From the IMG/VR virus record IMGVR_UViG_3300009129_000029, positions 1 through 41,071 of that record: a DNA stretch of 41,071 nt; one strand, 5' to 3'. Under the pieces are notes generated by a model. The model was given only the letters and a program-made list of their open reading frames with translations, had not been told where the DNA came from and did not search any database. Shown here piece after piece: positions 1,147 to 40,015 of the stretch. The DNA is from a virus. A program made the position numbers and the translations under genes. Every line of letters begins with the position of its first letter. Position 1 is the first letter of the stretch.

Positions 1147-1940
1147 TATACACCGCCGGGAGGCGAAGACTTGCTACGCTTCATCTTTGGCTTCTTATGA
1201 CCCTTGCCACCACCGGTATCCTTGTTGTCACCCTTGCCAATCAAGTCTTTCTTATGTCCTGCGTGCTGCCTTCTCATTCTGGTTTGAAACTCTCCGTGAT
1301 CCAACTCTGGATCTTTGTCCTCGTCCATGCCCTCTGCATAGTGGACAAGGCGCGTGACAATGGTTACCTCGGGATATTCTCGCTTCAACTCATCGACTGC
1401 TGCGATATTCTTTGGCGAGTCATCGAAGAACAAAACGTCCTTAGCTCCAAGGTTAATAATCTCATTCTCGATCCATTCCTTCTTTGCGTATGGATCGCTG
1501 GTGCCTAACGTGATCATCTCAAACATGCTGCCATCAATGCCCAACACACCCTCAATGAAGCCCATAATATCGTTGGCTGCAGCGTCAGCCCGTGCGGTCA
1601 GGATTGCGATCTTCCTGCCTGCACCATCGCGCATCTCCGCATCGACAACCTTCTGCATAATCCGTGCAACCTGCTCCACCTGTCGAGGATTGATGAGCCT
1701 ATCAAACTCACTGAAATCGAACACCTCGCCCTTTTCGTTGATGTATTCTCTAGTTGCTGGATTATATTCTGCGATGGGTTCATACACCGCGTACTCGGCT
1801 GGCGACAATCTAAACTCTGTCCCGTCTGCTCGGGTCACCATAACGTCTGCATCAGTCACAGCCAGCGTATCATCAAAGTCGAACACTCTTAGCTTAGACT
1901 CATTAAGAAAATGATTCCATGTATCGAGATGTTTCTTCAT
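1146..1940 (-). CDS. HAD-superfamily phosphatase with leader and basic tail
   Basis: The 264-residue protein carries the HAD catalytic motif DFDDT at residues 21-25 (nucleophile Asp21, acid Asp23), motif II in AILTARAD and motif III in FFDDSPKN, so it should be a Mg-dependent phosphohydrolase. Substrate is not evident. The cap insert between motifs I and II is about 90 residues. The last 40 residues are Gly, Lys and His rich, suited to nucleic acid or polyanion binding. Residues 1-15 (WNHFLNES) fit a leader shared with several other proteins here, so the enzyme may be packaged in the virion. The ATG at 1940 has GGAG 8 bases upstream and starts 3 bases after the stop of the preceding gene. Confidence 0.8.
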   Translation of the reverse strand: MKKHLDTWNHFLNESKLRVFDFDDTLAVTDADVMVTRADGTEFRLSPAEYAVYEPIAEYNPATREYINEKGEVFDFSEFDRLINPRQVEQVARIMQKVVDAEMRDGAGRKIAILTARADAAANDIMGFIEGVLGIDGSMFEMITLGTSDPYAKKEWIENEIINLGAKDVLFFDDSPKNIAAVDELKREYPEVTIVTRLVHYAEGMDEDKDPELDHGEFQTRMRRQHAGHKKDLIGKGDNKDTGGGKGHKKPKMKRSKSSPPGGV

Positions 1941-1943
1941 AGT

Positions 1944-4900
1944 TTACTCCGCTTCTTTAATAATCCTTCTTATTTTAGCACGTAATTTTGCTTCTGTCAA
2001 GACTTTCTTTAAGTGTGCCACTCGCTCAAGCCGTGGAGTGTGGTCAAAGCCTCTGCGCTGCCTCTTGCGTTGCAGCAAATCCTCAATCTCTTCTTCGGTA
2101 GGCTTGCGACCACCAAATGCTATCGTCAACTCCTCAATAGCAGCCAGCCGCATTCGCAGATTTTCAGCTTCTTGAGGAGTAATGCCCATCGCTGCTGCGG
2201 CTCCCGCATCTCGGGATCCTCTGGCGTCGGTGCCTAATGGTGCTGCGTCACCCATGCCTAGCTGGTTCATAATCTCTTTGCGCCATGCTGCAACCTCTTC
2301 TTCGGAAGGGTCTTCGCCGTGGTTCGCTCTCCAGCGACTCTTGGCTAGCTTCAATTCATATTCAAGCCGCTTCTCATCTCTCTCTTCCTTTGTCCCAAAG
2401 AATTTATCTGTGATCTCTGGCTTGGCGTGACGCCTGAAGTCTACCTTATTGATGATTGCGCCTGCTACGCCCGCTTGGGTCATCCACTCTCTCACCATCC
2501 GTTCCCACGCCGAAGGCAGATGATTCTGCTGATCCCACTGGACGTAGACACCGTTGCTCATTCCGCGCAACAGTTTCTCGACCACAACCTCTTTCTCATA
2601 CACACTCATGTCGCTCCAAGTGTTGCCGGATGACCACCACTCGACAATCGCCTTGTTGTGGTTCATCGTTTCAGGGGTTCTAGTCTCGTAGGTAAACTTT
2701 GATAGAACCTTCTCGCTCAGTTCCATAGCTATGTTGCCGCTAAGATATTCTTTCTCCAACTCTGCTGCGATTTCAAGATTAGGCTCAATGACAAACTCTT
2801 GTGTCACCTCCTTCGCTGCTTGCAGAATCATGTCCATGTGTTCGTCCACAAACTCAACAAAGTGGAACGCGCCAGCCAACTCTTCCTTGGAGTCTTTGCT
2901 AGTAGCTATGATCCTGAACCTGAGATAGATTGGCACCTCTGCTGCTTCCCGCTGGTCGGCAAGGCCAAATTTCAAGCCAATCTGCACGTCCTTGGCAAAG
3001 TCCACTCCCTCGTATGCTGGTCTTGCGTACTTGTCTCCGAATGGAAGATCGATCTGCTTCTCTGAATAGTTATTCGCTGCAGCTTCCAGCTTCTTTAGTT
3101 TCTCCGCAAAGAAACGAGCAAAGGATGAGTTAGTGTCAGGTCCGACCCAGACCACGTTGCGGTCTTTTCTGCCTGCGATTCCTCGGGCTATCACATCATT
3201 GAATCTATTGTCGTGCATTAATTGGCGACTGATGGATGCATAGTTAAAGTTTGAGTGCTTGGTCAGCCAGTACAGCTTCTGTTTAGGAAGGTTAATGTCT
3301 AGCGGCACCTCTGGGTCTGCGTTGTGGTGTCCCACGCCTAGATTAAACCAGATCTCGCCTGACGGATCGTCATCGTCGTCATCTCCAATGATATTAAAGT
3401 TCTTGAGTCTTTCTTCAAAGTCTTCAATCTCGCTATTGGTATTGTCCCACGCGCTAGCCTTTGCGTAACCTTCCTCAACCAGTTTCTTTCTGACAATCTC
3501 GTAGAACCGGTCGTACTTGCCGTCTAACTCTCGCATATAATCTAAGAAATAGTCGGCATCGTCGGGGGTTCTGCAATCCTCGCAGTTAAAGTTGTAAGTG
3601 ATCTGCAGAGCGCCCTCATCGGTATGTTCAAAGTACACCTCTTCTGGATACTCGCTGGGGAGGTCGAGAATCCTATTCTCGAAATCGCGCAGGTCAGCGC
3701 CCCCAGTGGGTATGTCATATGTCGCGTGAACATCGTTGCCCTCACCATCGTCGCCCCAGCCAAGCGGGATTGTTAGCGTCAGCGTGCCGTCTGCCCAAAC
3801 GTGGGGCTCCTGCCCCCAATCATCATCATTAACGTGTGCGCCGAAGGATGTGTGTTCCAACTCGTTGTTGGCTTGGTCGTTAAGATCGTCAATGGCATTG
3901 TTGTATTCCTCTGCCATTTGGTCGTACTGATCTTCTTCCTCGCCTTCTGAATCGTGGTGTACGTTAACGCCGAAAGGGAACGGGTCATCCAAGCCCTCGC
4001 CTCTGCCCGGTCTAAAGAACATGCTAAGGATCTCGCCATCTCTGGTGTCGCCATAGCTGCCACCGTAGCGTGTAAGGTAGTCTAGCTGCGGTATGAAATA
4101 TGTGGTTGCCTCGCCCTTGCCAGTCTCGGGATCGGTGTCTCCCAACTCTTGAGCGAATATCTCCTTCTGCTTGTCCCACACAAACTCTCTGACTGCGCCG
4201 ACAAAACCGGGCGTGCCACTGCCATACGTTCTGCTCTCGGGCGCCGCAAAGGTTAGTTCGTTGGGATGATCGACGTACTTTCTAAGTCTAACGCGAGACT
4301 TTACTCCGATGCCGGGTACATCGCGGTCATTATCCCTGAAAATCTCTTCATCGTCAAGGTCGCCAATATCTCTCGGGTCTGGTGCTCGGGTGGCTTCTTT
4401 ACTATGCTTCTCAAGTGCAGCTTTATATTCTTCTTCAGATGTGATTCCTTCGTATGGCTTGAAACCTCTTTCTCCCGTGTTTCGACGAGCCTCGGCATCA
4501 TCATAGTTTTTAATGTACTGCTTAAATAACTCAGGGCTGATGTTTAGCTCTTTCGCTTTGGAGATCAGTGCCACCTCCTTGAATTTCTCTGGCTTTGCTG
4601 CCATCTCAACCCGCTTGTCAAGATCGCGCCACCACTTTGTGCCGTGGTTAGACCTAGCCCACACCCACAATAGCACCAACGCGCCCTCGGGACTGCCCGT
4701 GTCATAGTCCTGACGAATCTGCGTGATTCTCTCAGCTTGGCTCATCGTGTCGTACATTCTGTCCAGCTTCGCAATCGGTCTTTCTCTCTCCTCAGAAGGA
4801 GTTAAAAGTTTATTAAGTTCTGCCTCTGTGACTGCGTACGCGATAGGACCGTGACCTTTCGCCTCTTGCACAGCACAATGGAAATACTCGCTACCCTCGC

Positions 4901-5729
4901 TGTGGCATGAGTGAATGTTGCTAATGTCGCTCATGCGTAGTACGTCGATGGGGTGACGCGACAGGATGACGTGCATGTTCTGCGACTTGTCCTCAATCAG
5001 CCCTTGAGAGATTTTCTTGTGGTTGTTGTCTTTCGTATAGTGCGTCTGGTTCTTAGCCCACCACTGCGCGGAACCCTCGGGAACCTCGCCCTTCTTCTCA
5101 AGACCACCAATGATCTTGTTGATGCCCTGCTTCTGAACCTTAGTAATCGTCTCGCCCGCTCTCGGTCCCTTGGGAATGACCTGTTCGACTCGGCGCTCCA
5201 TAGTAAGATCGGCTACGTCAATCTCAACCTCATACTCGCCGCCGCCGTCAGCAGCAAGGCGTTGGCGCTTCTGCTTTACCTTCTTTGTGGGGAATTGACG
5301 ACCATGCGCATCGATTTGTCCTGCTTCCCATGCCTTCCATTCTTCTTTGGTTGGCTCCCACATCGCGTCTGTTTCTGGGTTGCGTCGTTGACCGGTTTCG
5401 GTTGTCTTCTCATAGTTATAAATACTGCGGTAGCGTTCCCGCATAGTATCGCTAATCGGAGGCAACCAGCCTGCAGCCTTGACCCCTCGCAGGATCGCTT
5501 TGAGCATGCGAGTGTCGGCACTGTCCATCGGGAAAGTAACGCGCATGTTCTCGCCAAAGATTTCATTGAAATCATAGGCTAGCCCATCTGTCTCACGCAT
5601 CCAGTCATAAATCTTGTTAGCAGTCTGCGCAGAGATTTCATTCATAATCTCGCGGCTCTCGTTGAGAGTCAGGGGCTTTATGCTTTGTGCGAACCGATGC
5701 CAGTTCTCTAGAATAGTTTTATAATCCAT
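1944..5729 (-). CDS. Very large virion-like protein, paralog of 37640-40015
   Basis: At 1261 residues this is the largest gene in the window. Its start (ENWHRFAQ, then LTLNES at about residues 20-25) fits the shared leader, ending in an LxE site like those cut by T4-type prohead protease. A central block with HPIDVLRMSD, SCHSEGSEYF and AVQEAKGHGPIAY, followed by SRVRLR and YGSGTPGF, is repeated in the same order in the 791-residue protein. Much of the middle is acidic with Asp runs. The C-terminus (KLRAKIRRIIKEAE) is basic and helical. No enzyme motif is recognised. Packaging or injection with the DNA is a hypothesis. The ribosome site is weak, and the gene starts 18 bases after its upstream neighbour. 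Confidence 0.8.
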   Translation of the reverse strand: MDYKTILENWHRFAQSIKPLTLNESREIMNEISAQTANKIYDWMRETDGLAYDFNEIFGENMRVTFPMDSADTRMLKAILRGVKAAGWLPPISDTMRERYRSIYNYEKTTETGQRRNPETDAMWEPTKEEWKAWEAGQIDAHGRQFPTKKVKQKRQRLAADGGGEYEVEIDVADLTMERRVEQVIPKGPRAGETITKVQKQGINKIIGGLEKKGEVPEGSAQWWAKNQTHYTKDNNHKKISQGLIEDKSQNMHVILSRHPIDVLRMSDISNIHSCHSEGSEYFHCAVQEAKGHGPIAYAVTEAELNKLLTPSEERERPIAKLDRMYDTMSQAERITQIRQDYDTGSPEGALVLLWVWARSNHGTKWWRDLDKRVEMAAKPEKFKEVALISKAKELNISPELFKQYIKNYDDAEARRNTGERGFKPYEGITSEEEYKAALEKHSKEATRAPDPRDIGDLDDEEIFRDNDRDVPGIGVKSRVRLRKYVDHPNELTFAAPESRTYGSGTPGFVGAVREFVWDKQKEIFAQELGDTDPETGKGEATTYFIPQLDYLTRYGGSYGDTRDGEILSMFFRPGRGEGLDDPFPFGVNVHHDSEGEEEDQYDQMAEEYNNAIDDLNDQANNELEHTSFGAHVNDDDWGQEPHVWADGTLTLTIPLGWGDDGEGNDVHATYDIPTGGADLRDFENRILDLPSEYPEEVYFEHTDEGALQITYNFNCEDCRTPDDADYFLDYMRELDGKYDRFYEIVRKKLVEEGYAKASAWDNTNSEIEDFEERLKNFNIIGDDDDDDPSGEIWFNLGVGHHNADPEVPLDINLPKQKLYWLTKHSNFNYASISRQLMHDNRFNDVIARGIAGRKDRNVVWVGPDTNSSFARFFAEKLKKLEAAANNYSEKQIDLPFGDKYARPAYEGVDFAKDVQIGLKFGLADQREAAEVPIYLRFRIIATSKDSKEELAGAFHFVEFVDEHMDMILQAAKEVTQEFVIEPNLEIAAELEKEYLSGNIAMELSEKVLSKFTYETRTPETMNHNKAIVEWWSSGNTWSDMSVYEKEVVVEKLLRGMSNGVYVQWDQQNHLPSAWERMVREWMTQAGVAGAIINKVDFRRHAKPEITDKFFGTKEERDEKRLEYELKLAKSRWRANHGEDPSEEEVAAWRKEIMNQLGMGDAAPLGTDARGSRDAGAAAAMGITPQEAENLRMRLAAIEELTIAFGGRKPTEEEIEDLLQRKRQRRGFDHTPRLERVAHLKKVLTEAKLRAKIRRIIKEAE

Positions 5730-6430: not shown

Positions 6431-6539
6431 AATAGTGTTCCTTATGTATATCGCTGTTGAGCATTCCAAACCCAACCCAAAACTTGTCGATAATAACATG
6501 CTTTACGTCGCCAATTTGAATCAATGTGCCCACACTCAC
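6318..6539 (-). CDS. Unidentified 73-residue protein, GTG start
   Basis: The frame starts at GTG 6539-6537, overlapping the TGA of the upstream gene as GTGA, with a GGGG-rich ribosome site. The product (VSVGTLIQIGDVKHVIIDKF onward) looks like a small beta-rich domain and ends in a short basic and acidic tail. Its 3' part overlaps the coiled-coil gene 6110-6430. The coupled start and protein-like composition argue that it is real. No family is recognised. Confidence 0.6.
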   Translation of the reverse strand: MSVGTLIQIGDVKHVIIDKFWVGFGMLNSDIHKEHYYETFSMGDKDGKRRTAIACTDFEAGMAEGKIRILSPA

Positions 6540-6916
6540 GGCGTCAACCCCACAGGGTTTCCCCAACGAACAATGTTAAGACCCTTGATTTTTGCCAAAT
6601 CTGTCATTAAATAGCGCCGAACCCAATACCTAGGCGACAGATCAGAGTTAAGCTCAAACTTAATAATATATCGATTAAACCAGTATTCGTCAGTAGCGCG
6701 AGCACGACTGACATGCCCAGCGCGAGCAGGATCAGTAACGGTCGTCACGCGCTCAATCGAACGAATATCGTCGAGCGTCTGATCTTTGTTGCCGCCTTTG
6801 GTCTTGCTGATGCGCACATCTACCTCGATTTCATAACTGCGCTGGATATATGTTGGGTCTTCGTCCTCTTTGAGAAGCCTAAACCACTTGTCTGTTGCTC
6901 TGCTTGATTCGTGCAT
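6536..6916 (-). CDS. Unidentified 126-residue phage protein
   Basis: I place the start at ATG 6916 (MHESSRATDKW) because it follows the stop of the phosphomannomutase gene. AAGGAG lies 15 bases upstream and the motif ACTATTTAT sits 3 bases before the ATG. The protein is soluble. Its central part (VTTVTD, ARAGHVSRARATDEYWFNRY) and C-terminal part (WVRRYLMTDLAKIKGLNIVRWG) give the impression of a conserved small phage protein seen in T4-like marine phages, but I cannot name it. A longer start at 6976 would overlap the upstream gene. Confidence 0.7.
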   Translation of the reverse strand: MHESSRATDKWFRLLKEDEDPTYIQRSYEIEVDVRISKTKGGNKDQTLDDIRSIERVTTVTDPARAGHVSRARATDEYWFNRYIIKFELNSDLSPRYWVRRYLMTDLAKIKGLNIVRWGNPVGLTP

Positions 6917-6919
6917 GTA

Positions 6920-6928
6920 ATAAATAGT
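6920..6928 (-). promoter_or_regulatory. ACTATTTAT motif, copy 1 of 4
   Basis: The minus-strand 9-mer ACTATTTAT lies 3 bases before the ATG at 6916, as ACTATTTAT-TAC-ATG. The same 9-mer is found only at 10661-10669, 16894-16902 and 40033-40041, always in a short gap before a gene. Read on the plus strand it is AATAAATA, close to the T4 late octamer TATAAATA but pointing against the genes. Its role is unproven. Confidence 0.45.
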
Positions 6929-6939
6929 TTGCTCCTTGC

Positions 6940-7677
6940 TTAAATGCTCTTTAGTAGTTGCGCTGTGTCTTTCCATGATTCAACAGGATGAACATTTCCG
7001 AAAACCCTCTTGCGTACAGCTTCTGCTATGGCATAATCGTTGCCGGGATATTCAATTCTATCCCCCACAAAGTGTATTATAGCATCCTGAGACAGTTTTT
7101 TAAAATGTTCTCTGATTACCTGTGATTTGTCGCGCCCTTTGTTAAAAATGTCAATGCTGACTGCGCCGCCGATGACAAAATCGCATTTGGGGTGCTTTTT
7201 CCGCAATTCCTTGACGATAGCCTGTCTCTCTTTGTGTTCCGCATCGTATGCGGCATACTCGTCGCGCTGGTCCTGTGTCGCGTTTCTGCCCACGATTGAG
7301 AAATTGATCATGCCAGTCCTGCCTTCGTGGTGCTTGCCTGTCTTTGTGGGATATTTGGAATTAGCAACTTCCAAGTCTAGATCCAATAAGAGTTCTCTGG
7401 ATGGCTCAAACTTGTGCTCATATTCATGAAACCATGCCCGCTCCTCGTCCTTCTTTCTCCTGTAATATACGTTGCCCATGCACGCGAACACACCCTCTAT
7501 ACGGTCCAAGACCTCGGGACTCAGTTGCTCAGCCAGACGCACAAAGCTGCCGCCCGAAACCAAATAAACCTCTTTGCCCTCCAACCATTCAAAAAATTGG
7601 CGCCGAAAAATTTGCACAGCCTTCTGTTTTGGGGGGGTCAAAGTTCCGTCCACATCAAACAAGTATATTTTTCTCAT
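6940..7677 (-). CDS. Eukaryotic-type phosphomannomutase
   Basis: Interconverts mannose-6-phosphate and mannose-1-phosphate, on the way to GDP-mannose. At 245 residues it matches the usual length of the alpha-PMM family (HAD type IIB), not the larger bacterial ManB. The catalytic DVDGT is at residues 8-12 (Asp8 and Asp10). The PMM core signature is visible as EGRTGMINFSIVGRNATQ followed by DQRDEY. IGGAVSIDIFNKGRDKSQV and FVGDRIEYPGNDYAIA complete the HAD-IIB metal site. The start at 7677 overlaps the stop of the cupin gene by ATGA, so the two mannose genes are translationally coupled. Family assignment is firm; the in vivo role in the phage is inferred. Confidence 0.9.
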   Translation of the reverse strand: MRKIYLFDVDGTLTPPKQKAVQIFRRQFFEWLEGKEVYLVSGGSFVRLAEQLSPEVLDRIEGVFACMGNVYYRRKKDEERAWFHEYEHKFEPSRELLLDLDLEVANSKYPTKTGKHHEGRTGMINFSIVGRNATQDQRDEYAAYDAEHKERQAIVKELRKKHPKCDFVIGGAVSIDIFNKGRDKSQVIREHFKKLSQDAIIHFVGDRIEYPGNDYAIAEAVRKRVFGNVHPVESWKDTAQLLKSI

Positions 7678-8027
7678 CTATTATAGTCATCCTGCAACCT
7701 AACCACATCGTCGATCTCTGCGGTACTGACCTCTATTAGTGTCACGTCTTCCTTGTCGGCACAGTAACGGTGAATGAGTCCCGGTCGAATACGCTGACTC
7801 TCGCCCTCTTTCAGCACGATTCTGATGCCTGTCTCTGTATCAATGTATTCGTGGTGTGGTCCCATCTCTAGCAGCAGAGAGCCTTTGAGTACATAGATCG
7901 TCTCGTCCTTCTCTTCATGATATTGGAGGGATAGTCTGTGACCCGCATTGATATGCAGAATCTTTCCCAAATACCTATCAGTGATTGCCCACCGATCTTC
8001 GTAGCCCCAAGGCTTCTCTACTCTCAT
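7674..8027 (-). CDS. Cupin of the mannose-6-phosphate isomerase type II family
   Basis: The 117-residue protein is a single cupin like the C-terminal domain of bifunctional ManC/AlgA enzymes (phosphomannose isomerase). It opens with the family hallmark VEKPWGYED. Metal ligands are in the cupin motifs: SLQYHEEKDETIYVLKG (His, His-equivalent and Glu) and the later IRPGLIHR (His). It should supply mannose-6-phosphate to the coupled phosphomannomutase. It lacks the guanylyltransferase domain, so GDP-mannose formation needs another enzyme. The ATG at 8027 is one base past the preceding stop. A related sugar-phosphate isomerase or epimerase activity is possible. Confidence 0.85.
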   Translation of the reverse strand: MRVEKPWGYEDRWAITDRYLGKILHINAGHRLSLQYHEEKDETIYVLKGSLLLEMGPHHEYIDTETGIRIVLKEGESQRIRPGLIHRYCADKEDVTLIEVSTAEIDDVVRLQDDYNR

Positions 8028-8028
8028 G

Positions 8029-12312: not shown

Positions 12313-14265
12313 TTATTCAGAACCTTCGGTTTCTTTTGTGAGCGTGGTGACAATCGTATTGCCATCGTTGATCGCTTCTTTGGCATAGCCTGCGGCATGG
12401 TCCCGCCGCTTTGAACTGAAGTATTTTCCGATGTTCGTAGCAAAACCTTTTGTTGTTTCCAACAGAGTCATCACATCGCCTTCCATCTTCTCGATATAGA
12501 TGTCAGCACACTTGTTGATGTTGTCAGACGACAAGTTGAGGATACCATAGAACTGAACAGTGGCTAGCTTTCTCATGTTAGTCATCTCGGTTCTAGTGAT
12601 CGTCCACTGGCTACCGCCTTCCTTACCTGACTCAGCGAGAAGCCTTTCTTCTGCCATCAGTCGCTTTTCTCTTTCGTGAAACTCTCCGAAGAAAGATTCC
12701 GAAACCTGTTGGGCTGCAGCGTACGCCTTATCATAAGCCCGCTTCAAGCCCTTAACTGTCTTCTCATCAGTAATCTCTGGATGCTTCGCCAACCAAGCCT
12801 CAAAGCTTCCCTTGCCGGTTGCAGCATCGGACTCTGCTTGCTCTGCAGCTTCAAGCCCCATGCCCTGTACGCGGGCTGCTTTGTCAAACTTATCTCTCTT
12901 TTTCTGTGGGTTAGGTGGCAGCGCTGCGGCTTCGTCAAAGTTTCCTTCGGCGTCTAGGTTCTTATAGAACATGCCCCTGCCCTTTGTGTAGCCCGGTGTT
13001 TGTTGAAGGATCTGGAACATCTGTAGCTTCCACTCGGGAGAGTCATTCCAGTTTTTAATGTGTCCTGCCAAAGTCGGACCCATTTTACCGAGAAGAGCCT
13101 TCTCATTATTAGACTCGCCCATGATATCTATGAAGTTGTTGCGATCAATAATAAAATCCCAGATTGCCAACTCAGAAACATTATCGCCCTCGACATTCTT
13201 TCGAGCGATAAGGTACTTAATCTGTGGGACGCCAGAGCCGCCGCGAATAAACAGATAGTCTACAAGGTTAGTAAAGCTTCCATGAATGCCTGTGTCTGGG
13301 CTAAGCAGCTTCAAACTAACTGGTTCATTGTCGCCGGTAACAAAGTCTTCAATAGGCAGCGTGCCGCCGACACGCCCAGCGATCTGCTTGCCGCCTGTGA
13401 CTGCTGCCATGAAGCCTTCAAAGACGAAGCCGGCTGAAGACTCACTATAATCGTTCAGTGTAGCCTGAAGCGCCTCGATGATCTGCATCATGTTCAACAC
13501 TGCATTGAATCTGCCGCCGCGTGCTTTGTTGATTGCCTCCTTCGGATCGATGAAGGAGTTAATATGTAGGATTCGTGATTTAATGTCTGGCTGTCTTGTG
13601 ATCGAAGCAAAGATTCTCTCAATGTCTTGGCGCGATTGGCTGCTGGGATCTCCCCAAGCCTCGTTAGGAACCAGTGAGGGGATATCAATCTTGTAACTGA
13701 AGCGACCTCCCTTCTTTCTCTCATTCATCTGCTGCATGCCGCGTGCATCTTGCATCGACTGTTGGGTAAGCATTGCCCGAAGATCCTCTTCCTCGATGCC
13801 GCTGTCAGCAAGAAGCTTAATAGCTGCAACCATGTCAGAGTCTACGCCAAGCATTAGAAGCTGACGATAGATCTCTTTCCACTGCTCGGGAGGTAGCCTG
13901 CCCTCTGCGATGTTCCCTCCGCCAGACGAAGGCGAGCCTCTGGTGGCGAGTCCTTGTGGATCATCGAAGTGAAGCATCACCGAATCAACCATCGCTGGGT
14001 CAGGTGCGCCCATGACTTGAGCGACGACCCGTTCAATTGTGGGGCGATCATTCTCAGCGCCGAGTGGCACCTTTGTCGCGATCATCTCAGGGTTAATGTT
14101 TGTATCAAAGCCTGCCGGGTCCGAACGGGATGCGATATCGGGATATGAATCTCCGATAGTCTCCTCGATCATCTCAACCAACATCTCAAAGCTTACTGAT
14201 GCAGCCGGTGCCTTGGTTGTGGCGAAGTAGCTCTCGATGAGCCTGTCTAATTCTTTGTTTGCCAT
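12313..14265 (-). CDS. Unidentified 650-residue protein, possible virion nuclease-like
   Basis: The N-terminus (MANKELDRLIESYF) has an LxE site (LIE-S) near residue 11, like other leader-bearing proteins here. The middle contains FVFEGFMAAVTGGKQ, LPIEDFV and PVSLKLLS: Glu, Asp and SLK spaced as in restriction-endonuclease-like folds. This suggests, but does not show, a PD-(D/E)xK core at about residues 280-330. The C-terminal third is helical and ends acidic (TKETEGSE). It starts 7 bases after the lysin stop with no good ribosome site. Function is unknown. Confidence 0.7.
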   Translation of the reverse strand: MANKELDRLIESYFATTKAPAASVSFEMLVEMIEETIGDSYPDIASRSDPAGFDTNINPEMIATKVPLGAENDRPTIERVVAQVMGAPDPAMVDSVMLHFDDPQGLATRGSPSSGGGNIAEGRLPPEQWKEIYRQLLMLGVDSDMVAAIKLLADSGIEEEDLRAMLTQQSMQDARGMQQMNERKKGGRFSYKIDIPSLVPNEAWGDPSSQSRQDIERIFASITRQPDIKSRILHINSFIDPKEAINKARGGRFNAVLNMMQIIEALQATLNDYSESSAGFVFEGFMAAVTGGKQIAGRVGGTLPIEDFVTGDNEPVSLKLLSPDTGIHGSFTNLVDYLFIRGGSGVPQIKYLIARKNVEGDNVSELAIWDFIIDRNNFIDIMGESNNEKALLGKMGPTLAGHIKNWNDSPEWKLQMFQILQQTPGYTKGRGMFYKNLDAEGNFDEAAALPPNPQKKRDKFDKAARVQGMGLEAAEQAESDAATGKGSFEAWLAKHPEITDEKTVKGLKRAYDKAYAAAQQVSESFFGEFHEREKRLMAEERLLAESGKEGGSQWTITRTEMTNMRKLATVQFYGILNLSSDNINKCADIYIEKMEGDVMTLLETTKGFATNIGKYFSSKRRDHAAGYAKEAINDGNTIVTTLTKETEGSE

Positions 14266-15233: not shown

Positions 15234-15896
15234 TCAGACGATAATATCTGCGATACCATACTCAACAGCTTCTGACGCTGAGAGATAAATGTTCACCTTT
15301 CTTTCCAACAGTTTCTTAAGAGTCCGCTTGGTCAGGCTAGTCTCTTTAACCAGCGCCTCCATGTATGTATCTTGAGAGTTTCTAATCTCTTCCATCTCAT
15401 TCTCTAGATTGTGAATCGAGCCGTGGTTGCCACCAATGACCGAATGAATCATAACGCGACAGTTCGCGCCAATCTTTCGCTTGCCCTTGGTACCAGCAGC
15501 AAGCAGTAGCACGCCAGCAGACATGACCTTGCCAAGCCCGAAGGTGTGAATCTCACAGTCCTTCTGGATTACGCGCATCACATCATACAACGCGAACATA
15601 TCGTCAGCACTGCCACCGTAGGTAGAGATGATCATCTCCATCGGCTCCCATACTTCCTTGCCTTCTTCATCTTCAGACTTGCCCGAATGATGTAAGACCA
15701 GTAGCCCGCTCAACGTTTCGCGGGACTTGCGCTCGTCAATGTCTCCATAAAGACCAACAACGCGCATCTCTTCATCTGGCACATCAAGCCCTAGGGCTGC
15801 AGCCAACTGCTCAGCCGACACTTCTTCTCCGACTAGTTCTTCTTCTTTCTCTTCCTTTTTCTCATTATCAGCTTTCTTTCTCGGTGCCATCAACAT
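15234..15896 (-). CDS. ClpP-like serine protease 1
   Basis: The 220-residue protein is a ClpP/crotonase-fold protease with a charged 40-residue N-terminal extension (KKADNEKKEEKEEE). The nucleophile Ser126 is in GKVMSAGVLLLAAG and His151 is in RVMIHS. At the third triad position the expected Asp is Asn202 (ERKVNIYLSASEA), so activity may be altered or depend on a partner. In phages such proteins can serve in capsid maturation as well as proteolysis. The ATG at 15896 overlaps the upstream TAA as TAATG, with AAGGA 8 bases upstream. A second ClpP-like gene is at 20905-21516. Confidence 0.85.
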   Translation of the reverse strand: MLMAPRKKADNEKKEEKEEELVGEEVSAEQLAAALGLDVPDEEMRVVGLYGDIDERKSRETLSGLLVLHHSGKSEDEEGKEVWEPMEMIISTYGGSADDMFALYDVMRVIQKDCEIHTFGLGKVMSAGVLLLAAGTKGKRKIGANCRVMIHSVIGGNHGSIHNLENEMEEIRNSQDTYMEALVKETSLTKRTLKKLLERKVNIYLSASEAVEYGIADIIV

Positions 15897-16351: not shown

Positions 16352-16852
16352 CTACTTGCGGGTCTTAGCTGCAGCAACGAGGCGAGCGGCAACGCGGCGA
16401 GCAACTTCGTTAACCATATCTTCATCGGAAGTGATGGTAACGTTGTCTGCTAGCTCTTGCATAAGTGGCTCTTCTTCCTCGTCGGGTGGAAGTTCCTCAT
16501 CACCGGCGACCGGTGCTAACTCCTCTCCCTCGGGGGCTTCTTCTTCGCCACCTTCCATGCTTACGTCTGCGCCCTGCTTCTGGAGTGCTGCAACAATGTC
16601 GGAAACTAGTTCTTCGGCGTCAACCTCAACTGTGTCGCCCATGGGCTCTTCGGGCATTTCTTCTTCTGGACCTTCATCGCCGGGGAGTTCTTCTTCTCCA
16701 GCCATGGGGTCTTCTGCGCCCATTCCCATTTCGTCGTCACGTTGATATGGTCCTTCGCTAAGGAACTCGTCTGTGAACTTAGACTCAATCTCAGCCAGAC
16801 GCATAAACCTGCGGGTGACGGATTCGTTCAAAATTAGCTTTTTCTTGCTCAT
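16352..16852 (-). CDS. Highly acidic scaffold-like protein
   Basis: The 166-residue protein starts MSKKKLILNESVTRRFMRLA, a basic leader with an LNE-S site, followed by about 100 residues dominated by Glu, Asp, Pro and Gly, then a basic helix (NEVARRVAARLVAAAKTRK). This layout (basic end, acidic middle, LxE site) is like phage prohead core or scaffolding proteins and proteins packaged in the head, which is my best guess. There is no enzyme motif. AGGAG lies 12 bases before the ATG, and the ACTATTTAT motif is 41 bases upstream of the start. Confidence 0.75.
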   Translation of the reverse strand: MSKKKLILNESVTRRFMRLAEIESKFTDEFLSEGPYQRDDEMGMGAEDPMAGEEELPGDEGPEEEMPEEPMGDTVEVDAEELVSDIVAALQKQGADVSMEGGEEEAPEGEELAPVAGDEELPPDEEEEPLMQELADNVTITSDEDMVNEVARRVAARLVAAAKTRK

Positions 16853-19044: not shown

Positions 19045-19523
19045 CGGGTCAGTGCTCCCATTATTGGCGGAGCCGCACTCAGACGCTTTCGGAAGACCAC
19101 GACGGCTGAAGGAAACGGCGCGGAGTTTTGACTGTCGCCAAACTTGAGCCGACCCTTGATGAAGTATACATACTCAGCCTTCATCACATAATCGTGCCAG
19201 TACTTCGTGTCTGTCCGTGCTGGAATCAACATGACAACCTTAGTGTTTTCATCTGCCTCGGCAGACTCATAGCCCTTGCGAATCCACTGATCAATACCAC
19301 GACCATAGGGAGGATTGACAAAGACAGTGTGACCAGCCCAATCCTTAGTAAGTCCGTCCTCCGCTTCCGTATAGAAGTTGGCGCACTTAGTGTTGTGTGG
19401 AGTGGCACAGGGATCCAAGTCGAACGGACCAAATCGCCAGTTCAGTTTGTCAAAGAAATCCTGTGGAGTTGCCCACTCGCCTGTCTTGGATGAAAATAAT
19501 GTTTGCTGTGTTGCTGTGTTCAC
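19041..19523 (-). CDS. Phage-type DNA N6-adenine methyltransferase
   Basis: The 160-residue enzyme fits the phage Dam family: WATPQDFFDKLNWRFGPFDLDPCATP opens the fold and VNPPYGR is the catalytic NPPY motif. The C-terminus with FGDSQNSAPFPSAVVVF is also family-typical. It should methylate adenine, probably to protect phage DNA from host nucleases. It starts at GTG 19523, overlapping the cytochrome stop as GTGA. A second adenine methylase of another class is at 34491-35336. Confidence 0.9.
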   Translation of the reverse strand: MNTATQQTLFSSKTGEWATPQDFFDKLNWRFGPFDLDPCATPHNTKCANFYTEAEDGLTKDWAGHTVFVNPPYGRGIDQWIRKGYESAEADENTKVVMLIPARTDTKYWHDYVMKAEYVYFIKGRLKFGDSQNSAPFPSAVVVFRKRLSAAPPIMGALTR

Positions 19524-19852
19524 TTGCTCACCTTAAGAGTTTTTAAATATGCGACCATTTGATCTAACTGTGTCCCTGTCCATCCGGCTCCAATGGGAGG
19601 CATCAGAGGTGACTTGCCGACCGACGCGCCGCCAGCAGCAATCGCTGTCCGTACTTGCTGGTCGGAGCGCGATGCCCAAAAGCTTGCATCCTGAAAGCTA
19701 GCGGGCTTGACAGGGAGAGAAGCAGAAGCAGGTCCATCGCCTGCTCCGAACTCCCCATGACAGCCGGCGCACTGAACCTCGTAGTCTGAGGCAGCATCAG
19801 CGTGAGCCATTGTGGAGCCGCCGAGAAAAAATATGATAAGTACTCTACTCAC
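19520..19852 (-). CDS. Periplasmic class I cytochrome c
   Basis: The 110-residue protein has an N-terminal signal peptide (MSRVLIIFFLGGSTMAHADA), the heme-attachment motif CAGCH at residues 28-32, and a likely Met84 axial ligand in SPLMPP. A final helix (LDQMVAYLKTLKV) is typical of small class I cytochromes. It should be exported, receive heme from host maturation, and carry electrons in the periplasm. The start is GTG 19852 with GGGAG 7 bases upstream, overlapping the dUTPase stop by 8 bases, so it is firmly inside a phage operon. The electron partners are unknown. A c-type cytochrome is rare in phage genomes. Confidence 0.9.
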   Translation of the reverse strand: MSRVLIIFFLGGSTMAHADAASDYEVQCAGCHGEFGAGDGPASASLPVKPASFQDASFWASRSDQQVRTAIAAGGASVGKSPLMPPIGAGWTGTQLDQMVAYLKTLKVSK

Positions 19853-31633: not shown

Positions 31634-31719
31634 TGGTAGGACTGGCGGGACTCGAACCCGCATGACCTAGGGTCGAGAGATTTTAAGTCTCTTGTGTCTA
31701 CCAATTCCACCACAGTCCC
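31634..31719 (-). tRNA. tRNA-Leu (anticodon UAA)
   Basis: The minus-strand transcript starts GGGACTG and ends CAGTCCT-A-CCA, a full acceptor stem with encoded CCA. The anticodon stem-loop AGAGA-CTTAAAA-TCTCT carries UAA, and a long variable arm (CGACCCTAGGTC) and the T-loop GGGTTCGAGTCCC follow, as in type II leucine tRNAs. It lies between a terminator and the exonuclease gene. Confidence 0.95.
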
Positions 31720-33381: not shown

Positions 33382-34491
33382 TTAAATCCACTGGTGGACT
33401 TTTCTGCCACCAGCGGGATAGATTGTGGCACGCAAATGCTTAATACCAAAGTTATTGCGTGCGGTGGCATATCTGGTCACTAGAGCCGGCTTATATGATT
33501 CGTCAAAATCAATAGCTGAATCCAAGCGAGCCATCATATGGTGAGCCGACAAAGTATATGCTACTTCGGGTTCGTTGTCATCTTTGGTGGCTTCTGCCCC
33601 TTCTGTTTCAAGCGTGAAAAGCCCTTGAGCCACCAAGTCACAGTTGTTAGGGGCGCCCGGTCCCGTGGGGCTATAGTCTTGCCCAAAAATGCTCATGTAT
33701 TGCAAGGCTCTATCAGAAATAATTCTGCCGATACTAAGCCCCGGTGGGTACAGTTTTCTGCCGTCTGGTGCGATCTGTAGGTGTGGCTCCAAGTCAGCAA
33801 TAAAACTTTTTACCTCGGGGTGGTTATAAATCTTCTCGCCAGCCTTGATACTCAGTCCTGACCACTGACCGAAACTTTTGGCACTGCTGCCGTCTTTGTG
33901 GGAAATATAAACTGGTGGCTTTCCATCTTTCCTGATAAGCTGAAAATCGCTTTTGGGATCTACGCCTCCGACCTTTACCGTATCTTCTATACCTATAATG
34001 TCATCATATCTTGCAACCTCTTTCCCCGACGAGTTCAGAACCTTAATAATGATCGCATCAGTGTTGGCTGCAGCAAGCGCCTTGCTTATGAGATCGGATA
34101 GCTGACCTCTTGCGGCAATCTCTTTCTTAACGTAGAAGTCTGTCCCTTTGCCGCCAAACTCAGCAGTCTTCAGCAGTTTGCCAATCGGCAGAGTGCGACC
34201 ATCGGTCGTACGAAGAGCGAAATTGCGACCCAACATCTGCCTTGCGACGGCTGCTGAAATCTCTCCCGAAGAGAGCATCTTCTTTAGTGCAGCAATAATC
34301 TCTTCGTCTCTTTCAAAAGTCACCTGCGAGCCATCAACTGCGTCGAAAGGCTCTCCGTTTTCCAACTTTTCAATAAAGCGAGCCATACGCTGTTGAGATT
34401 TCGCCAACTGGGAGAAGCTTAAAGTTGCCTCTGTGACAATCTCTTCTTTAAGGTAGTCGCGCCAGCCTTCCATGATTGGTTGCATTATCAT
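33382..34491 (-). CDS. Unidentified 369-residue protein with virion-type leader
   Basis: The start MIMQPIMEGWRDYLKEE fits the shared W-x-x-F/Y-L-x-E leader. A later part, PKSDFQLIRKDGKPPVYISHKDG, has an Asp and a K-D spaced like a PD-(D/E)xK nuclease core, and the segment SAKSFGQWSGLSIKAGEK follows. A nuclease or DNA-binding virion protein is conceivable, but I cannot show it. The ATG at 34491 is coupled by TAATG to the methylase gene. A 51-base gap with the recA promoter follows it. Confidence 0.65.
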   Translation of the reverse strand: MIMQPIMEGWRDYLKEEIVTEATLSFSQLAKSQQRMARFIEKLENGEPFDAVDGSQVTFERDEEIIAALKKMLSSGEISAAVARQMLGRNFALRTTDGRTLPIGKLLKTAEFGGKGTDFYVKKEIAARGQLSDLISKALAAANTDAIIIKVLNSSGKEVARYDDIIGIEDTVKVGGVDPKSDFQLIRKDGKPPVYISHKDGSSAKSFGQWSGLSIKAGEKIYNHPEVKSFIADLEPHLQIAPDGRKLYPPGLSIGRIISDRALQYMSIFGQDYSPTGPGAPNNCDLVAQGLFTLETEGAEATKDDNEPEVAYTLSAHHMMARLDSAIDFDESYKPALVTRYATARNNFGIKHLRATIYPAGGRKVHQWI

Positions 34492-35535: not shown

Positions 35536-35612
<77 letters not shown>

Positions 35613-36493: not shown

Positions 36494-36522
36494 AATATAA
36501 CCTATTCTGAAGCTAAAGTCAA
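36494..36522 (-). promoter_or_regulatory. Sigma-70 promoter of ssb
   Basis: TTGACT (36522-36517), 17 bases, and TATATT (36499-36494) form a good sigma-70 promoter just past the stop of the upstream gene. The leader hairpin follows directly. Expected transcripts cover ssb and perhaps the tRNA and H1-like gene. Confidence 0.75.
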
Positions 36523-36525
36523 GGA

Positions 36526-36789
36526 TTATTTTGAACTTTCTTCAAAGGGGTTATCAACCTCGATTTCGGTCACGTTACCTTCCACTGTTTTCCAATTAAA
36601 CATGCGGAATGCATTTGTGTCCAAGTCCCAAACAAGTTCCAAGCCCTCAGACAAGGTGGACTTTCGACCAGTACCCTTAATCTGAGAAGCGATAAACTTC
36701 TCGGGAATATCTGTAATACGGACAAAGCGCATTGTTCGCGCATCTCCGTTCTTCTTCGTGAATGTACCATTATAGGCTTTCATCAACAT
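36526..36789 (-). CDS. DUF2693-like phage protein
   Basis: The 87-residue protein reads MLMKAYNGTFTKKNGDARTM, RFVRITDIPEKFIASQIKGT and a third block LVWDLDTNAFRMFNWKTVEG, which fits the short phage family DUF2693. That family has no known function. AGGAGG precedes the ATG at 36789, which shares a base with the stop of the FtsZ-like gene (TGATG). The second ATG two codons on is also possible. Confidence 0.75.
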   Translation of the reverse strand: MLMKAYNGTFTKKNGDARTMRFVRITDIPEKFIASQIKGTGRKSTLSEGLELVWDLDTNAFRMFNWKTVEGNVTEIEVDNPFEESSK

Positions 36790-37631
36790 CAGACCTCCTG
36801 TTCTTGTATCTCTGATGAATTGGCTATTAGATAGCCATAGTTGTTGTCATAGTCAGTAGAGTGAATCCGTACCGAAACGATAGTTTCATCACTTACCATG
36901 TTCGCGCTACGTTCGCGCAAAGTCGTGAAAAGATCTCCGTCTGTTTCCAGTTGTTCTTTATTGATAGCATAAATATAACATCTTTCGTTGATGGTGTCAA
37001 GAGGGAAAAACAACTTTTCTTCATTTTTTTCAATATCGACCAATCCGAACGTTGAAACGCGGGCTGTTGCCAGCGAGGTTGACGGAGTGTTATAGACCGT
37101 CTTGGTATTCAGGAAAACGTTAGTCATGTGAACCGTCCCGGCGATCAATTCATTCAGACGTTTATAGTACCCGATCACTGGAACGTTTTCAAGTATTCTT
37201 TCTATCTCTTTGTTATCGATCATGTAAAGCCTCTCAAACACTCCACTTCTTGCATACTGCTGCAACACATTTCTTACCACACGTTCGTGAAGACGGGATT
37301 CGTTGTTGAGCAAGTTGCGATCAGGCTTAATATAGAGGATGCTCACCTTGCACTTCTGCAGCTTCTCCAGAATGCGCAGCGATACGCCGGATACTCGACC
37401 TGCGCCGCAAACAACGAACAGCACCTCCGAGTCCTTGGTCAGACCCCTAAAGAATGAACGAAAGTTCAAAGGGATCGTTTCGTATTCTTCAACGTTGCCA
37501 ACTTCTGGCAATAAAAAATTTCCTTTTTCCTTCGGCAGTTCCACGTCAAGTTTATAAATCTTATACTGTGGAAACTGGGCGAATTCATCTGCGATGTTAC
37601 AGCCCGCAGCGCCTAAGCCAATGATGTTCAC
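36789..37631 (-). CDS. FtsZ/tubulin-like protein with degenerate GTP loops
   Basis: The 280-residue protein follows the FtsZ/tubulin nucleotide domain: an opening NIIGLGAAGCNIADEF (FtsZ has GVGGGGGNAV), LDV near residue 30, and a second strand-loop-helix EVLFVVCGAGRVSGVSLRIL in place of GGGTGTG. KVSILYIKPD, an ERLYMIDNKEIERIL segment and a helix NELIAGTVHMTNVF follow in the right order. The GTP signature is changed and no catalytic Asp loop is evident after the last helix, so it may not hydrolyse GTP. It starts at GTG 37631 with GAGGTGA upstream. Possible roles are a filament former, an inhibitor of host FtsZ, or an unrelated nucleotide-binding protein. Confidence 0.6.
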   Translation of the reverse strand: MNIIGLGAAGCNIADEFAQFPQYKIYKLDVELPKEKGNFLLPEVGNVEEYETIPLNFRSFFRGLTKDSEVLFVVCGAGRVSGVSLRILEKLQKCKVSILYIKPDRNLLNNESRLHERVVRNVLQQYARSGVFERLYMIDNKEIERILENVPVIGYYKRLNELIAGTVHMTNVFLNTKTVYNTPSTSLATARVSTFGLVDIEKNEEKLFFPLDTINERCYIYAINKEQLETDGDLFTTLRERSANMVSDETIVSVRIHSTDYDNNYGYLIANSSEIQEQEV

Positions 37632-37639
37632 ATGTCACC

Positions 37640-40015
37640 TCAACTATATAAAAAGTTTTTCCAGTTCTTAACGATGGACTCATTAGTAACGTCTCTTGGC
37701 GGCTCTTCGGTTCTGTCGTCGGTGGTCTGGACGTGCTCGCCCACCACCTGATTGAACACAATCTGCACTCTTGCTGCCAACTCGTCTTCGTCATCGTTAT
37801 GTTCAATCGTGACTTTCATAGCTTCAATCTGCTCTTCGCTGCTATTGTCATTGACCGCAAGCACTATGTAGAGCCTAATTATGGGGGAACCAGAGGTCGT
37901 GCGAAGCTCTGACACCTTTGTAATCATATTTGGATAATGCCTGTCATCACCCGGTGTGCCCTCTTCTGCCCATGCATGCTCCACCAATGCCTTGCGTAAG
38001 GGAACGCTAAACTCTCTGCTCATTAGAATCGTCTTAACGTCTTCGGGCGACATGTTATCGGGGTAGTCTGGGTATGCCCATACCGTAGCCTCGACACCGT
38101 AGTATTCCATGTGGTCTGCTTCTTCGGCTGTAATATCCCACTCGTATGCGGTAAACTCGCCATTGTCTACTTCAGCGCCAAAGTTGTTGAGAGCGCCGCC
38201 TTCCATGTATCCGTCGCGCTTTGCCATGCGAGACAACTCGCCCTTGACAGCATCATACATGTCGTCAACCTCGTTAACCCTAAAGCAAACATTCTCAAAC
38301 GAATCGGCGTTGTAGGTATAGCCCTCGCCACCGGTGATATAGTCCTGTTCCAGTTGTATATCCAGCGCAATCGTATCATTAGAGAAGCGGTAAAGGCGAG
38401 TGCCCCACGAAGAATCATCCATAAATCCCCATTCAAAATCGCGCAACTCATCAGCCCAATGTTCGACAACCCGGCGGCTGTCAGGAAGCTGGTTCCAATC
38501 GTCAGCGTCCCATTTAACAGTCATCTTGGCATCTACTTCTACATAATAGCCTTCGCCGCCGTCGTATGTGACCTCTCCATCAATCACACATGCTTGGTAT
38601 CGATTAGTCCAGTCCATAGCAAGGTCATTGACTCTTTCTTGCTCTGCTGCCATGGTTGACTCAAGGAAATCCATTTCTGGCAGCGAGTTTTCTGTCGCTG
38701 TGTTTTGTCCGACTCTTTCAAGACTGATTCCTGTCAGGTCGTGGATGAGTCCCTTGATATTATTATCCTCGTAAGATCCGCCAAACTTAATCCACGCGGC
38801 ATCTTCCGGCGCAGATGCAATAGTTTGTGCCTGACTCTCTTTAGCCCACTCTGCAACCCTTTTTTGAAAACCGGGGATCTTAGAGCCATACACGCGCTTT
38901 TCAGGAATGGCGACTTCAGTGCCGTCATCAAAACCCTGCATGCCGGTGGGATCGGGTGGGTACCATCGCACTTGACGCAGACGGACGCGGGAAAGCGGAA
39001 CAAAACTCATGGTAAGTCCAATGTGACTGCCGCGAATATCGTCGGCAAAAATCTCTTCGCCGGTATTAATCGCATCTTCGGCAATTTCAAGGTTATCTGT
39101 TTCTGTGGCATTCAGCAGTTCTTCTGTCCTGACCACATATGCGACTGCGCCGTGACCGTGAGCCTCTGCGACTGCGCATTTGAAATATCCTTCTGAATGT
39201 TGTTCGCGGGACGGTGGCGAATGACATGATGTGATTCGCTGGAAATCAGACATGCGGAGAATGTCTACAGGATCGCGTGTAATTATAATACTGTATCTGT
39301 CGCTGTACAGCTTGTCCATGTTCTTCTTAATATATTCGGCATTGTCCTTCCAGAAGTTTGCCATCTTCTGAGCGTCAGCCATCAGCTCTTCATGTCCCGA
39401 ATGCCATAGACCGGGATTGGGAATATACAGCGACATCTGCTTATGCAGCCGCTCCCACGATTCCATCTGCTCTGCGTTGAGAGCATCTGCAGCCTCATTG
39501 CCAGTGACGTTGCCGGGGTGACGGAGAGTGCGATCTGCCTTTTTCTGGATAATGGCAAGTAGCTCATTCTGCCTATGTGCAACATCTGCAATTTTCCCAA
39601 AGAGTTTACCGATTTTCATCTGAATCTTCTTCTTTCTCTTCTCAGGGCGGGCGCCAGTGATTGCAGCCATGATATCGTCTGTGGCAGACTTCGTTGACAC
39701 CTCTCTTTCAGCGTAAACCATGCCCTTTTCCCAATCTACCGTAAATCCTTGGTCTTGGAGTGTTTTCGCAAACTTGCCCAAATCGCTTGTGTCGTCAAAT
39801 GCTTGGAAATCGATGATAAGGCGCGTTTTACCTTCAAATAGGTCGTTGAACGCCATATCCTCCGGTTCCATCGAATCGATAGCATCTTGGATATATGAAT
39901 GCTCGTCTTCGTCGAGTTCTCGGAGCAATTTGCTCTCTGTGTACATTCTTGGCTTTTTAGCCGGTTTTCTGGCTTCAGTCAAAAAACTGCGCCAGCCGTA
40001 TTCGTCGTAATTCAT
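37640..40015 (-). CDS. Large virion-like protein, paralog of 1944-5729
   Basis: The 791-residue protein starts MNYDEYGWRSFLTEARKPAK, the clearest example of the shared leader (W-x-x-F-L-x-E-A). It shares with the 1261-residue protein the blocks AFNDLF near residue 55, RDPVDILRMSD, SCHSPP, YFKCAVAEAHGHGAVAY, SRVRLRQVRW and YGSKIPGF, in the same order. The second half is acidic with many aromatic residues. No catalytic motif is evident. By analogy with T4 Alt and internal proteins it may be packaged and injected. The ACTATTTAT motif is 17 bases before the ATG, supporting late expression. Confidence 0.75.
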   Translation of the reverse strand: MNYDEYGWRSFLTEARKPAKKPRMYTESKLLRELDEDEHSYIQDAIDSMEPEDMAFNDLFEGKTRLIIDFQAFDDTSDLGKFAKTLQDQGFTVDWEKGMVYAEREVSTKSATDDIMAAITGARPEKRKKKIQMKIGKLFGKIADVAHRQNELLAIIQKKADRTLRHPGNVTGNEAADALNAEQMESWERLHKQMSLYIPNPGLWHSGHEELMADAQKMANFWKDNAEYIKKNMDKLYSDRYSIIITRDPVDILRMSDFQRITSCHSPPSREQHSEGYFKCAVAEAHGHGAVAYVVRTEELLNATETDNLEIAEDAINTGEEIFADDIRGSHIGLTMSFVPLSRVRLRQVRWYPPDPTGMQGFDDGTEVAIPEKRVYGSKIPGFQKRVAEWAKESQAQTIASAPEDAAWIKFGGSYEDNNIKGLIHDLTGISLERVGQNTATENSLPEMDFLESTMAAEQERVNDLAMDWTNRYQACVIDGEVTYDGGEGYYVEVDAKMTVKWDADDWNQLPDSRRVVEHWADELRDFEWGFMDDSSWGTRLYRFSNDTIALDIQLEQDYITGGEGYTYNADSFENVCFRVNEVDDMYDAVKGELSRMAKRDGYMEGGALNNFGAEVDNGEFTAYEWDITAEEADHMEYYGVEATVWAYPDYPDNMSPEDVKTILMSREFSVPLRKALVEHAWAEEGTPGDDRHYPNMITKVSELRTTSGSPIIRLYIVLAVNDNSSEEQIEAMKVTIEHNDDEDELAARVQIVFNQVVGEHVQTTDDRTEEPPRDVTNESIVKNWKNFLYS

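What the first reader, a model, noticed from the sequence alone, without database searches (positions are those of the whole stretch)
1900..40015. Shared N-terminal leader with LxE site on six unrelated proteins, like a capsid-targeting propeptide
The HAD phosphatase (WNHFLNES), the 1261-residue protein (WHRFAQ then LTLNES), the 791-residue protein (WRSFLTEA), the 369-residue protein (WRDYLKEE), the acidic protein (LILNES) and the 650-residue protein (LIES) all carry an L-x-E near the N-terminus. The first four also share W-x-x-F/Y. T4 internal head proteins use a leader of the MKTYQEFIAEA type, and T4 prohead protease gp21 cuts after (L/I)-x-E. If the analogy holds, this is a set of packaged, possibly injected proteins including a phosphatase.
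Basis: partly seen in the sequence, partly recalled or inferred. Interest (0 to 1): 0.7.

Follow-up and report, generated by a model that had tools for sequence, protein, structure and literature searches.

The report
Packaging tag on phage-carried proteins
A short address label, matching the one phage T4 uses to load proteins into its head, sits on five proteins of this uncultured marine phage and on well over a hundred unrelated enzymes in related phages, which would point directly to the proteins such phages carry and probably inject into their hosts.

Summary
L-x-E near the N-terminus is not enriched in this window (9 proteins versus 10.0 expected), so the 650-aa and acidic proteins are not supported by it. 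The longer motif W-x-x-[FY]-[LIV]-x-E is real. The 791-aa protein has a second copy at its C-terminus.

About 36 of 52 window genes have relatives in three 187-195 kb viral records that encode T4-type gp21 protease and gp23 capsid protein. There the leader (MKLLLENWRRYLNEE) sits on proteins next to gp21 and on HAD, NUDIX and kinase-like proteins. The same DNA pattern occurs in at least 120 IMG/VR stretches, but in only 2 stretches of 257 Gb of bacterial and archaeal genomes.

Two tests show an exchangeable tag: it moves between N- and C-terminus within one family, and one locus carries the leader on different cargo in different contigs. Residue spacing equals T4 IPIII positions 4, 7 (targeting) and 8, 10 (processing).

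Best reading: a T4-type capsid-targeting sequence, greatly expanded in uncultured Far-T4-like phages. Packaging, cleavage and injection are inferred, not shown.

The parts
1899..1940 (-). N-terminal leader MKKHLDTWNHFLNE of the HAD-family phosphatase (gene 1146-1940); predicted cut after E14
   Evidence: Profile score 13.3, rank 2 of 52. Leader kept in G003, G016 and G019 orthologs. HAD homologs in G007 (MKLLLENWRKYLNED) and L183, L188, L192, L197, L229 carry the canonical leader.
5658..5729 (-). N-terminal leader MDYKTILENWHRFAQSIKPLTLNE of the 1261-aa protein (gene 1944-5729); W-x-x-F followed by a displaced L-x-E
   Evidence: Profile score 9.6, rank 3. ILENWxKF conserved in L021, L022, L013, L024 and L150.
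39974..40015 (-). N-terminal leader MNYDEYGWRSFLTE of the 791-aa protein (gene 37640-40015)
   Evidence: Profile score 7.6, rank 4. Conserved in four orthologs. Predicted isolated helix 8-14 in a disordered stretch, residues 1-35.
37643..37687 (-). C-terminal tag TNESIVKNWKNFLYS of the 791-aa protein
   Evidence: Present in 27 of 37 full-length family members. Predicted helix 779-790 after a disordered linker 762-780.
34444..34491 (-). N-terminal leader MIMQPIMEGWRDYLKE of the 369-aa protein (gene 33382-34491); a second possible site is VTE-21
   Evidence: Profile score 29.2, rank 1. Leader present in the 66% ortholog L010, absent in T4-superfamily isolate homologs. Same leader on different bodies at this locus in G016 and G020.
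6866..6916 (-).
   Evidence: Rank 5 of 52 by profile, score 2.3. The body matches residues 908-1007 of the 1165-aa leader-bearing protein at the syntenic place in G006; leader similar to G008 DMWFRYLKDD.
14230..14265 (-). N-terminus MANKELDRLIES of the 650-aa protein (gene 12313-14265): L-x-E without the W-leader; weak candidate
   Evidence: L-x-E kept in G003, G016, G020, G007 and G008 orthologs, but L-x-E alone is not enriched.
16820..16852 (-). N-terminus MSKKKLILNES of the acidic protein (gene 16352-16852): L-x-E without the W-leader; weak candidate
   Evidence: LNES/LNEA/LTEG in relatives. Resembles scaffold starts MSNLLNES in G006 and MSNLLNEA in G008. L-x-E alone is not enriched.

Best explanation
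The shared leader is a capsid-targeting sequence of the T4 type. Inferred mechanism: a short amphipathic helix with W-x-x-[FY] docks the cargo protein to the prohead core during head assembly. After the shell closes, the gp21-type protease cuts after E in [LIV]-x-E, frees the cargo from the core, and leaves it inside the DNA-filled head for delivery with the genome. The helix also works at a C-terminus. Shown here: the motif, its enrichment, its exchange between unrelated proteins and between ends of one protein, and the gp21/gp23 background of relatives. Not shown: packaging, cleavage and injection.
For: (1) An independent profile picks exactly the four W-proteins, plus a fifth, out of 52 window genes. 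(2) About 36 of 52 window genes have homologs, in broadly collinear order, in G006, G007 and G008, which encode S77/gp21 protease and gp23. (3) In those genomes, proteins next to gp21 carry the leader: G008 192702-193889 TMDAWRKFLTEA, G007 179725-181689 YEGWQRHLSEA, G007 182664-183251 IIERWDRYINED; L289 has it on both sides of gp21. (4) S77 is found in 11 of 11 leader-bearing records of at least 139 kb, and HK97-type S78 in 0 of 19 records. (5) At least 120 IMG/VR stretches hold the leader DNA pattern, against 2 stretches in 257 Gb of genomes, one of them a phage contig; 129 non-redundant carriers match 65 PHROG families and diverse Pfam enzymes. (6) In the 791 family the tag is at N only in 7, C only in 22, both in 5 of 37 full-length members. 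(7) Between a recombinase and a Dam gene that are 93-97% identical, window, G016, G020 and G003 carry different bodies; window shares only residues 1-17 with G016 and G020. (8) With only hh[ED]xW required, 52 of 73 N-termini also have [FYH]+3, [LIVM]+4 and E+6. (9) In T4 IPIII (MKTYQEFIAEA), targeting depends on residues 4 and 7 and processing on 8 and 10 (PMC9026906): the same spacing. (10) AlphaFold2 places both tags of the 791-aa protein as helices on low-confidence linkers.
Against: No virion proteomics. The window contig has no structural gene, so gp21 of this very phage is inferred from relatives. The T4 leader itself does not score with the marine profile (-24): spacing is shared, but W is Y in T4. 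The 1261-aa leader lacks the adjacent L-x-E, and the 6536-6976 start codon is uncertain. T4-superfamily isolate homologs of the 369-aa body lack the leader, so that body does not need it everywhere.
Confidence: 0.8

Rival explanations
1. The peptide is a docking tag for a different phage complex, such as the replication or transcription machinery, the phage ClpP-like proteases or an intracellular compartment, and not for the prohead.
For: Window carriers sit among replication genes. Two ClpP-like proteins (15234-15896, 20905-21516) are encoded here. A tag that works at either end fits any docking peptide.
Against: Carriers include proteins directly beside gp21. Spacing equals the tested T4 targeting and processing residues. 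An [LIV]-x-E follows the helix. No leader was found on the window's polymerase, helicase, SSB or recombinase.
Confidence: 0.1
2. The shared 5' ends are a recombination or translation-initiation feature of the DNA (mosaic gene starts), with no targeting role for the peptide.
For: Leaders are strongest at gene starts, often in tandem genes with overlapping starts.
Against: The same peptide occurs at C-termini, where neither initiation nor a 5' homology block can explain it. Conservation follows amino-acid spacing.
Confidence: 0.04
3. Chance: L-x-E and W-x-x-F are common and the reader picked matches.
For: True for L-x-E alone (9 versus 10.0 expected), hence for the 650-aa and acidic proteins.
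Against: Profile test, the genome versus viral collection contrast and N-terminal enrichment in three independent genomes (21 proteins versus about 0.9 expected).
Confidence: 0.02

Closest known systems
T4 capsid targeting sequence of internal proteins IPI, IPII and IPIII (Mullaney and Black 1996; reviewed in PMC9026906)
   Same: Short N-terminal peptide; aromatic-x-x-aromatic followed by aliphatic-x-E; carried by otherwise unrelated proteins; host phage lineage encodes gp21 (S77) and gp23.
   Different: W instead of Y; typically four extra residues (hydrophobic run plus E) before the W; also used at C-termini; spread over dozens of protein families, many of them enzymes.
T4 Alt, cut at both ends by gp21 (PMC9026906)
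   Same: Large protein carrying propeptide-like stretches at both termini, as in the 791-aa protein.
   Different: The 791 family shows no Pfam, PHROG or PDB relative; it is not shown to be an ADP-ribosyltransferase.
P1 DarB N-terminal packaging signal (PMC9024508)
   Same: N-terminal signal that sends a large cargo protein into the head.
   Different: No shared consensus among Dar proteins is reported there; here the consensus is clear and comes with a protease-type site.
Far-T4 phages (RM378, Flavobacterium phage immuto, Microcystis phage Mel-JY01)
   Same: Closest gp23 among isolate records, about 43-49%; immuto also encodes GroEL, a DnaB-like helicase and family-A polymerases.
   Different: The canonical MKLLLENWR leader was not found in the isolate collection. 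In the parts of immuto read, a protein beside gp21 has HKWQAKFLKES (W-x-x-x-F spacing) and another starts MKKSQLRQIIKEA.

Membership tests
T4-type capsid targeting sequence (CTS) | Short propeptide-sized stretch at a terminus (10-19 residues in T4) | tested here: met
   14-16 residues to E in three leaders and 24 in the 1261-aa protein.
T4-type capsid targeting sequence (CTS) | Aromatic residues at the targeting positions (4 and 7 in IPIII) and aliphatic-x-E at the processing positions (8 and 10) | tested here: met
   52 of 73 N-termini selected without these positions fit; T4 IPIII read, roles from PMC9026906. The 1261-aa leader meets only the aromatic pair.
T4-type capsid targeting sequence (CTS) | Phage encodes a gp21-type (S77) prohead protease | tested here: met
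   Met in relatives: 3 of 3 collinear large genomes and 11 of 11 leader-bearing records of at least 139 kb. Not testable in the 41 kb window, which has no structural module.
T4-type capsid targeting sequence (CTS) | Carried by proteins with unrelated mature parts | tested here: met
   65 PHROG families among 129 carriers; different bodies at one locus.
T4-type capsid targeting sequence (CTS) | Detectable sequence similarity to the T4 leader by profile | tested here: not met
   T4 IPIII scores -24 with the marine leader profile; only the spacing is shared. This is not a feature that defines the T4 CTS functionally, but it means common descent is not shown.
T4-type capsid targeting sequence (CTS) | Cargo found in the virion with the leader removed | not testable with these tools
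   Needs virion mass spectrometry.
T4-type capsid targeting sequence (CTS) | Leader sufficient to package a foreign protein | not testable with these tools
   Needs a fusion experiment.

The most novel reading that the evidence does not exclude
Uncultured Far-T4-like marine phages use one universal, end-independent packaging helix as a mobile module to load a large and rapidly exchanged set of enzymes (HAD phosphatases, NUDIX hydrolases, kinases, GNAT, zeta-like, possible ADP-ribosyltransferases and nucleases) into the head for injection, so that the tag alone lists the injected effectors of hundreds of uncultured phages.
Probability: 0.6. Interest if true: 0.8.

Novelty: new variant of a known kind. 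Interest (0 to 1): 0.64.

Why it matters
In T4 only a handful of head-packaged, injected proteins are known, and they are hard to find because their mature parts are unrelated. If this tag is what it seems, packaged proteins can be read directly from sequence in a large uncultured marine phage group. That gives a ready list of candidate host-takeover and anti-defence proteins, and a portable signal for loading proteins into phage heads. The tag's use at either end of a protein and the cargo exchange at a fixed locus would be new facts about how such repertoires evolve. No description of it turned up in the open papers searched.

Tried and rejected
L-x-E as the defining feature: rejected, not enriched. 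Treating the six as independent: rejected, two are paralogs. Finding the function of the 791/1261 family: no phage, Pfam or PHROG relative, and Foldseek against the PDB gave nothing below E 0.001. A PD-(D/E)xK nuclease reading of the 650-aa protein and of the cargo at the 369-aa locus was suggested by D...SxK patterns and a weak DpnI match (E 0.13, low-confidence model), but profile comparison, Pfam and PDB sequence search gave no support, so it stays a lead. S77 in the shorter relatives of the window: no hit, uninformative because they are fragments. Virion proteomics for immuto: the Flavobacterium phage paper checked does not mention vB_FspM phages or mass spectrometry. The first regular expressions for the second leader type were too strict and were loosened.

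Full report
What the window is. The window is a whole IMG/VR record of 41,071 bases with its main genes on the minus strand: replication and nucleotide metabolism, GroEL, two ClpP-like proteases, and several large unknown proteins. About 36 of the 52 curated genes have homologs, in broadly collinear order, in three viral records of 187-195 kb, G006, G007 and G008. Those records encode a gp21-type prohead protease (PF03420) and a gp23 major capsid protein (PF07068). The gp23 of G006 is closest, among isolate records, to Flavobacterium phage immuto, Microcystis phage Mel-JY01 and Rhodothermus phage RM378, i.e. the Far-T4 group (PMC4360716). The window is therefore very probably the replication half of a Far-T4-like phage; its own head genes are not on the contig.

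Is the observation more than chance? L-x-E alone is not: 9 proteins have [LI]-x-E in the first 16 residues against 10.0 expected from interior windows. The longer motif is. In G006, G007 and G008, W-x-x-[FYLM]-[LIVMA]-x-E occurs in the first 30 residues of 5, 7 and 9 proteins against 0.25, 0.24 and 0.38 expected from the interior rate. A 12-residue profile trained only on leaders from other contigs ranks the four W-proteins of the finding first to fourth of 52 window genes. At a score of 6 or more it finds 4 against 0.056 expected from shuffled N-termini, and 1 of 8,479 interior windows. The fifth-ranked gene, 6536-6976 (score 2.3), was not in the finding. Its body matches residues 908-1007 of a 1165-aa leader-bearing protein at the same syntenic place in G006, and G008 has a similar leader there: leader plus one domain of a larger cargo protein. 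In one search, with a slightly different training set and automated gene starts, the 791-aa window leader falls below 6, while its G003 and G016 orthologs pass.

How widespread is the leader? The same scan of 257 Gb of bacterial and archaeal genomes gave two stretches. One of these, in an Opitutia MAG, is evidently a phage contig with several further leaders. Of 129 non-redundant carriers, Pfam recognises NUDIX, HAD, zeta-type and AAA_33 kinases, M23 peptidase, GNAT, GDSL, 2H phosphoesterase and others, and PHROGs list 65 families. A kinase-like and a NUDIX carrier in G008 were confirmed separately. Residues fixed by the search pattern cannot be counted as conserved. So I repeated the count on loci fetched for other reasons, asking only for two hydrophobic residues, E or D, any residue, W: 65 of 73 have F/Y/H at +3, 54 have E at +6, and 52 have the full core.

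Is it a portable tag? Two tests say yes. First, in the 791/1261 family the tag is at the N-terminus only in 7, at the C-terminus only in 22, and at both ends in 5 of 37 full-length members. Two of the remaining three have ENW-x-KF and miss the expression by one residue. The C-terminal form (TNESIVKNWKNFLYS in the window) places the helix after an N-E. AlphaFold2 with 31 sequences (mean pLDDT 76) draws both tags as helices, residues 8-14 and 779-790, separated from the body by low-confidence stretches 1-35 and 762-780. Second, at the locus between the UvsX-like recombinase and a Dam-type methylase (93-97% identical in window, G016, G020 and G003) the intervening protein differs. Window shares only its first 16-17 residues, the leader, with G016 and G020; G016 and G020 share part of a body; G003 has another body with a divergent start MKPVLHKFRDNMRES. 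Homologs of the 369-aa body in T4-superfamily isolates lack the leader and begin near residue 22 or later.

Link to head assembly. Beside gp21 in G007 and G008 lie proteins with the leader, and in L289 both flanks of gp21 carry it. In G006, G007 and G008, MCP, scaffold-like and protease N-termini also contain L-x-E stretches (LTEG, LNES, LLTE), as in T4 gp21, gp22, gp23 and gp24. S77 protease was found in all 11 leader-bearing records of at least 139 kb and in 2 of 8 shorter ones, and HK97-type S78 in none of 19. I could not measure how common S77 is in large viral records without the leader.

Mechanism. In T4 IPIII, MKTYQEFIAEA, residues 4 and 7 govern targeting and 8 and 10 govern processing (PMC9026906). 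The marine core W-x-x-[FY]-[LIV]-x-E puts W, F/Y, L/I and E on exactly these positions. The most likely mechanism is therefore core docking by the aromatic pair, cleavage after E by gp21, retention in the head, and delivery with DNA. Motif, exchange and genomic background are shown; docking, cleavage, packaging and injection are inferred. T4 IPIII itself does not score with the marine profile (-24), so this is a variant with shared spacing and not a copy of the T4 sequence. Alt of T4 is reported to be cut at both ends (PMC9026906), a precedent for the double-tagged 791-aa protein. P1 DarB shows another N-terminal packaging signal (PMC9024508).

Verdict on the six. Supported: HAD protein, 1261-aa, 791-aa and 369-aa proteins, plus 6536-6976. 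Not supported beyond chance: the 650-aa and acidic proteins, although [LI]-x-E persists in their orthologs and the acidic protein's start resembles the scaffold start MSNLLNES, so they may still be prohead proteins with a different signal. The function of the 791/1261 family is unknown: no sequence or fold match was found.

Noticed in passing
G007 478-792, G008 7303-7824, L281 989-1228 and 6209-6718, L283 1189-1944: A second recurrent N-terminal leader, MKITKSxLKQIIKEE, occurs in the same phages and, in a related form, in cultured Flavobacterium phage immuto; the C-terminus of the window 1261-aa protein (KLRAKIRRIIKEAE) resembles it. It may be a second capsid-targeting class.
   Followed up: partly
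window 33382-34491 and the same locus in G016, G020 and G003: Cargo exchange locus between the UvsX-like recombinase and the Dam methylase: different bodies in different contigs; all show by eye a P-x-D...S-x-K pattern that might be a nuclease core, not confirmed.
   Followed up: partly
window 12313-14265: 650-aa protein: conserved E283, D307 and S-L-K 317-319 in an alpha-beta core; top PDB fold match is DpnI at E 0.13 on a low-confidence model, so a PD-(D/E)xK nuclease is only a lead.
   Followed up: partly
window 19520-19852: Small protein with a CAGCHG haem-binding motif, a likely c-type cytochrome carried by the phage; 87% identical copy in G020.
   Followed up: no
window 36789-37631: 280-aa protein with a GLGAAGCN glycine-rich start reminiscent of FtsZ/tubulin-like proteins, conserved in G006-G008; no Pfam hit.
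   Followed up: no
G008 92666-93682: Leader-bearing protein with a protein kinase-like N-terminal part (Pkinase E 9e-07); a candidate packaged kinase.
   Followed up: partly
L281 3854-5239: Leader-bearing 461-aa protein (MEKFIEDWRRYLVE) whose C-terminal half looks by eye like an ADP-ribosyltransferase; Pfam gives no support.
   Followed up: partly
window 15234-15896 and 20905-21516: Two different ClpP-like proteases in one phage, both with homologs in relatives.
   Followed up: no
window 31634-31719 and 35536-35612: Two tRNA genes, Leu (taa) and Met (cat), lie between protein genes.
   Followed up: no
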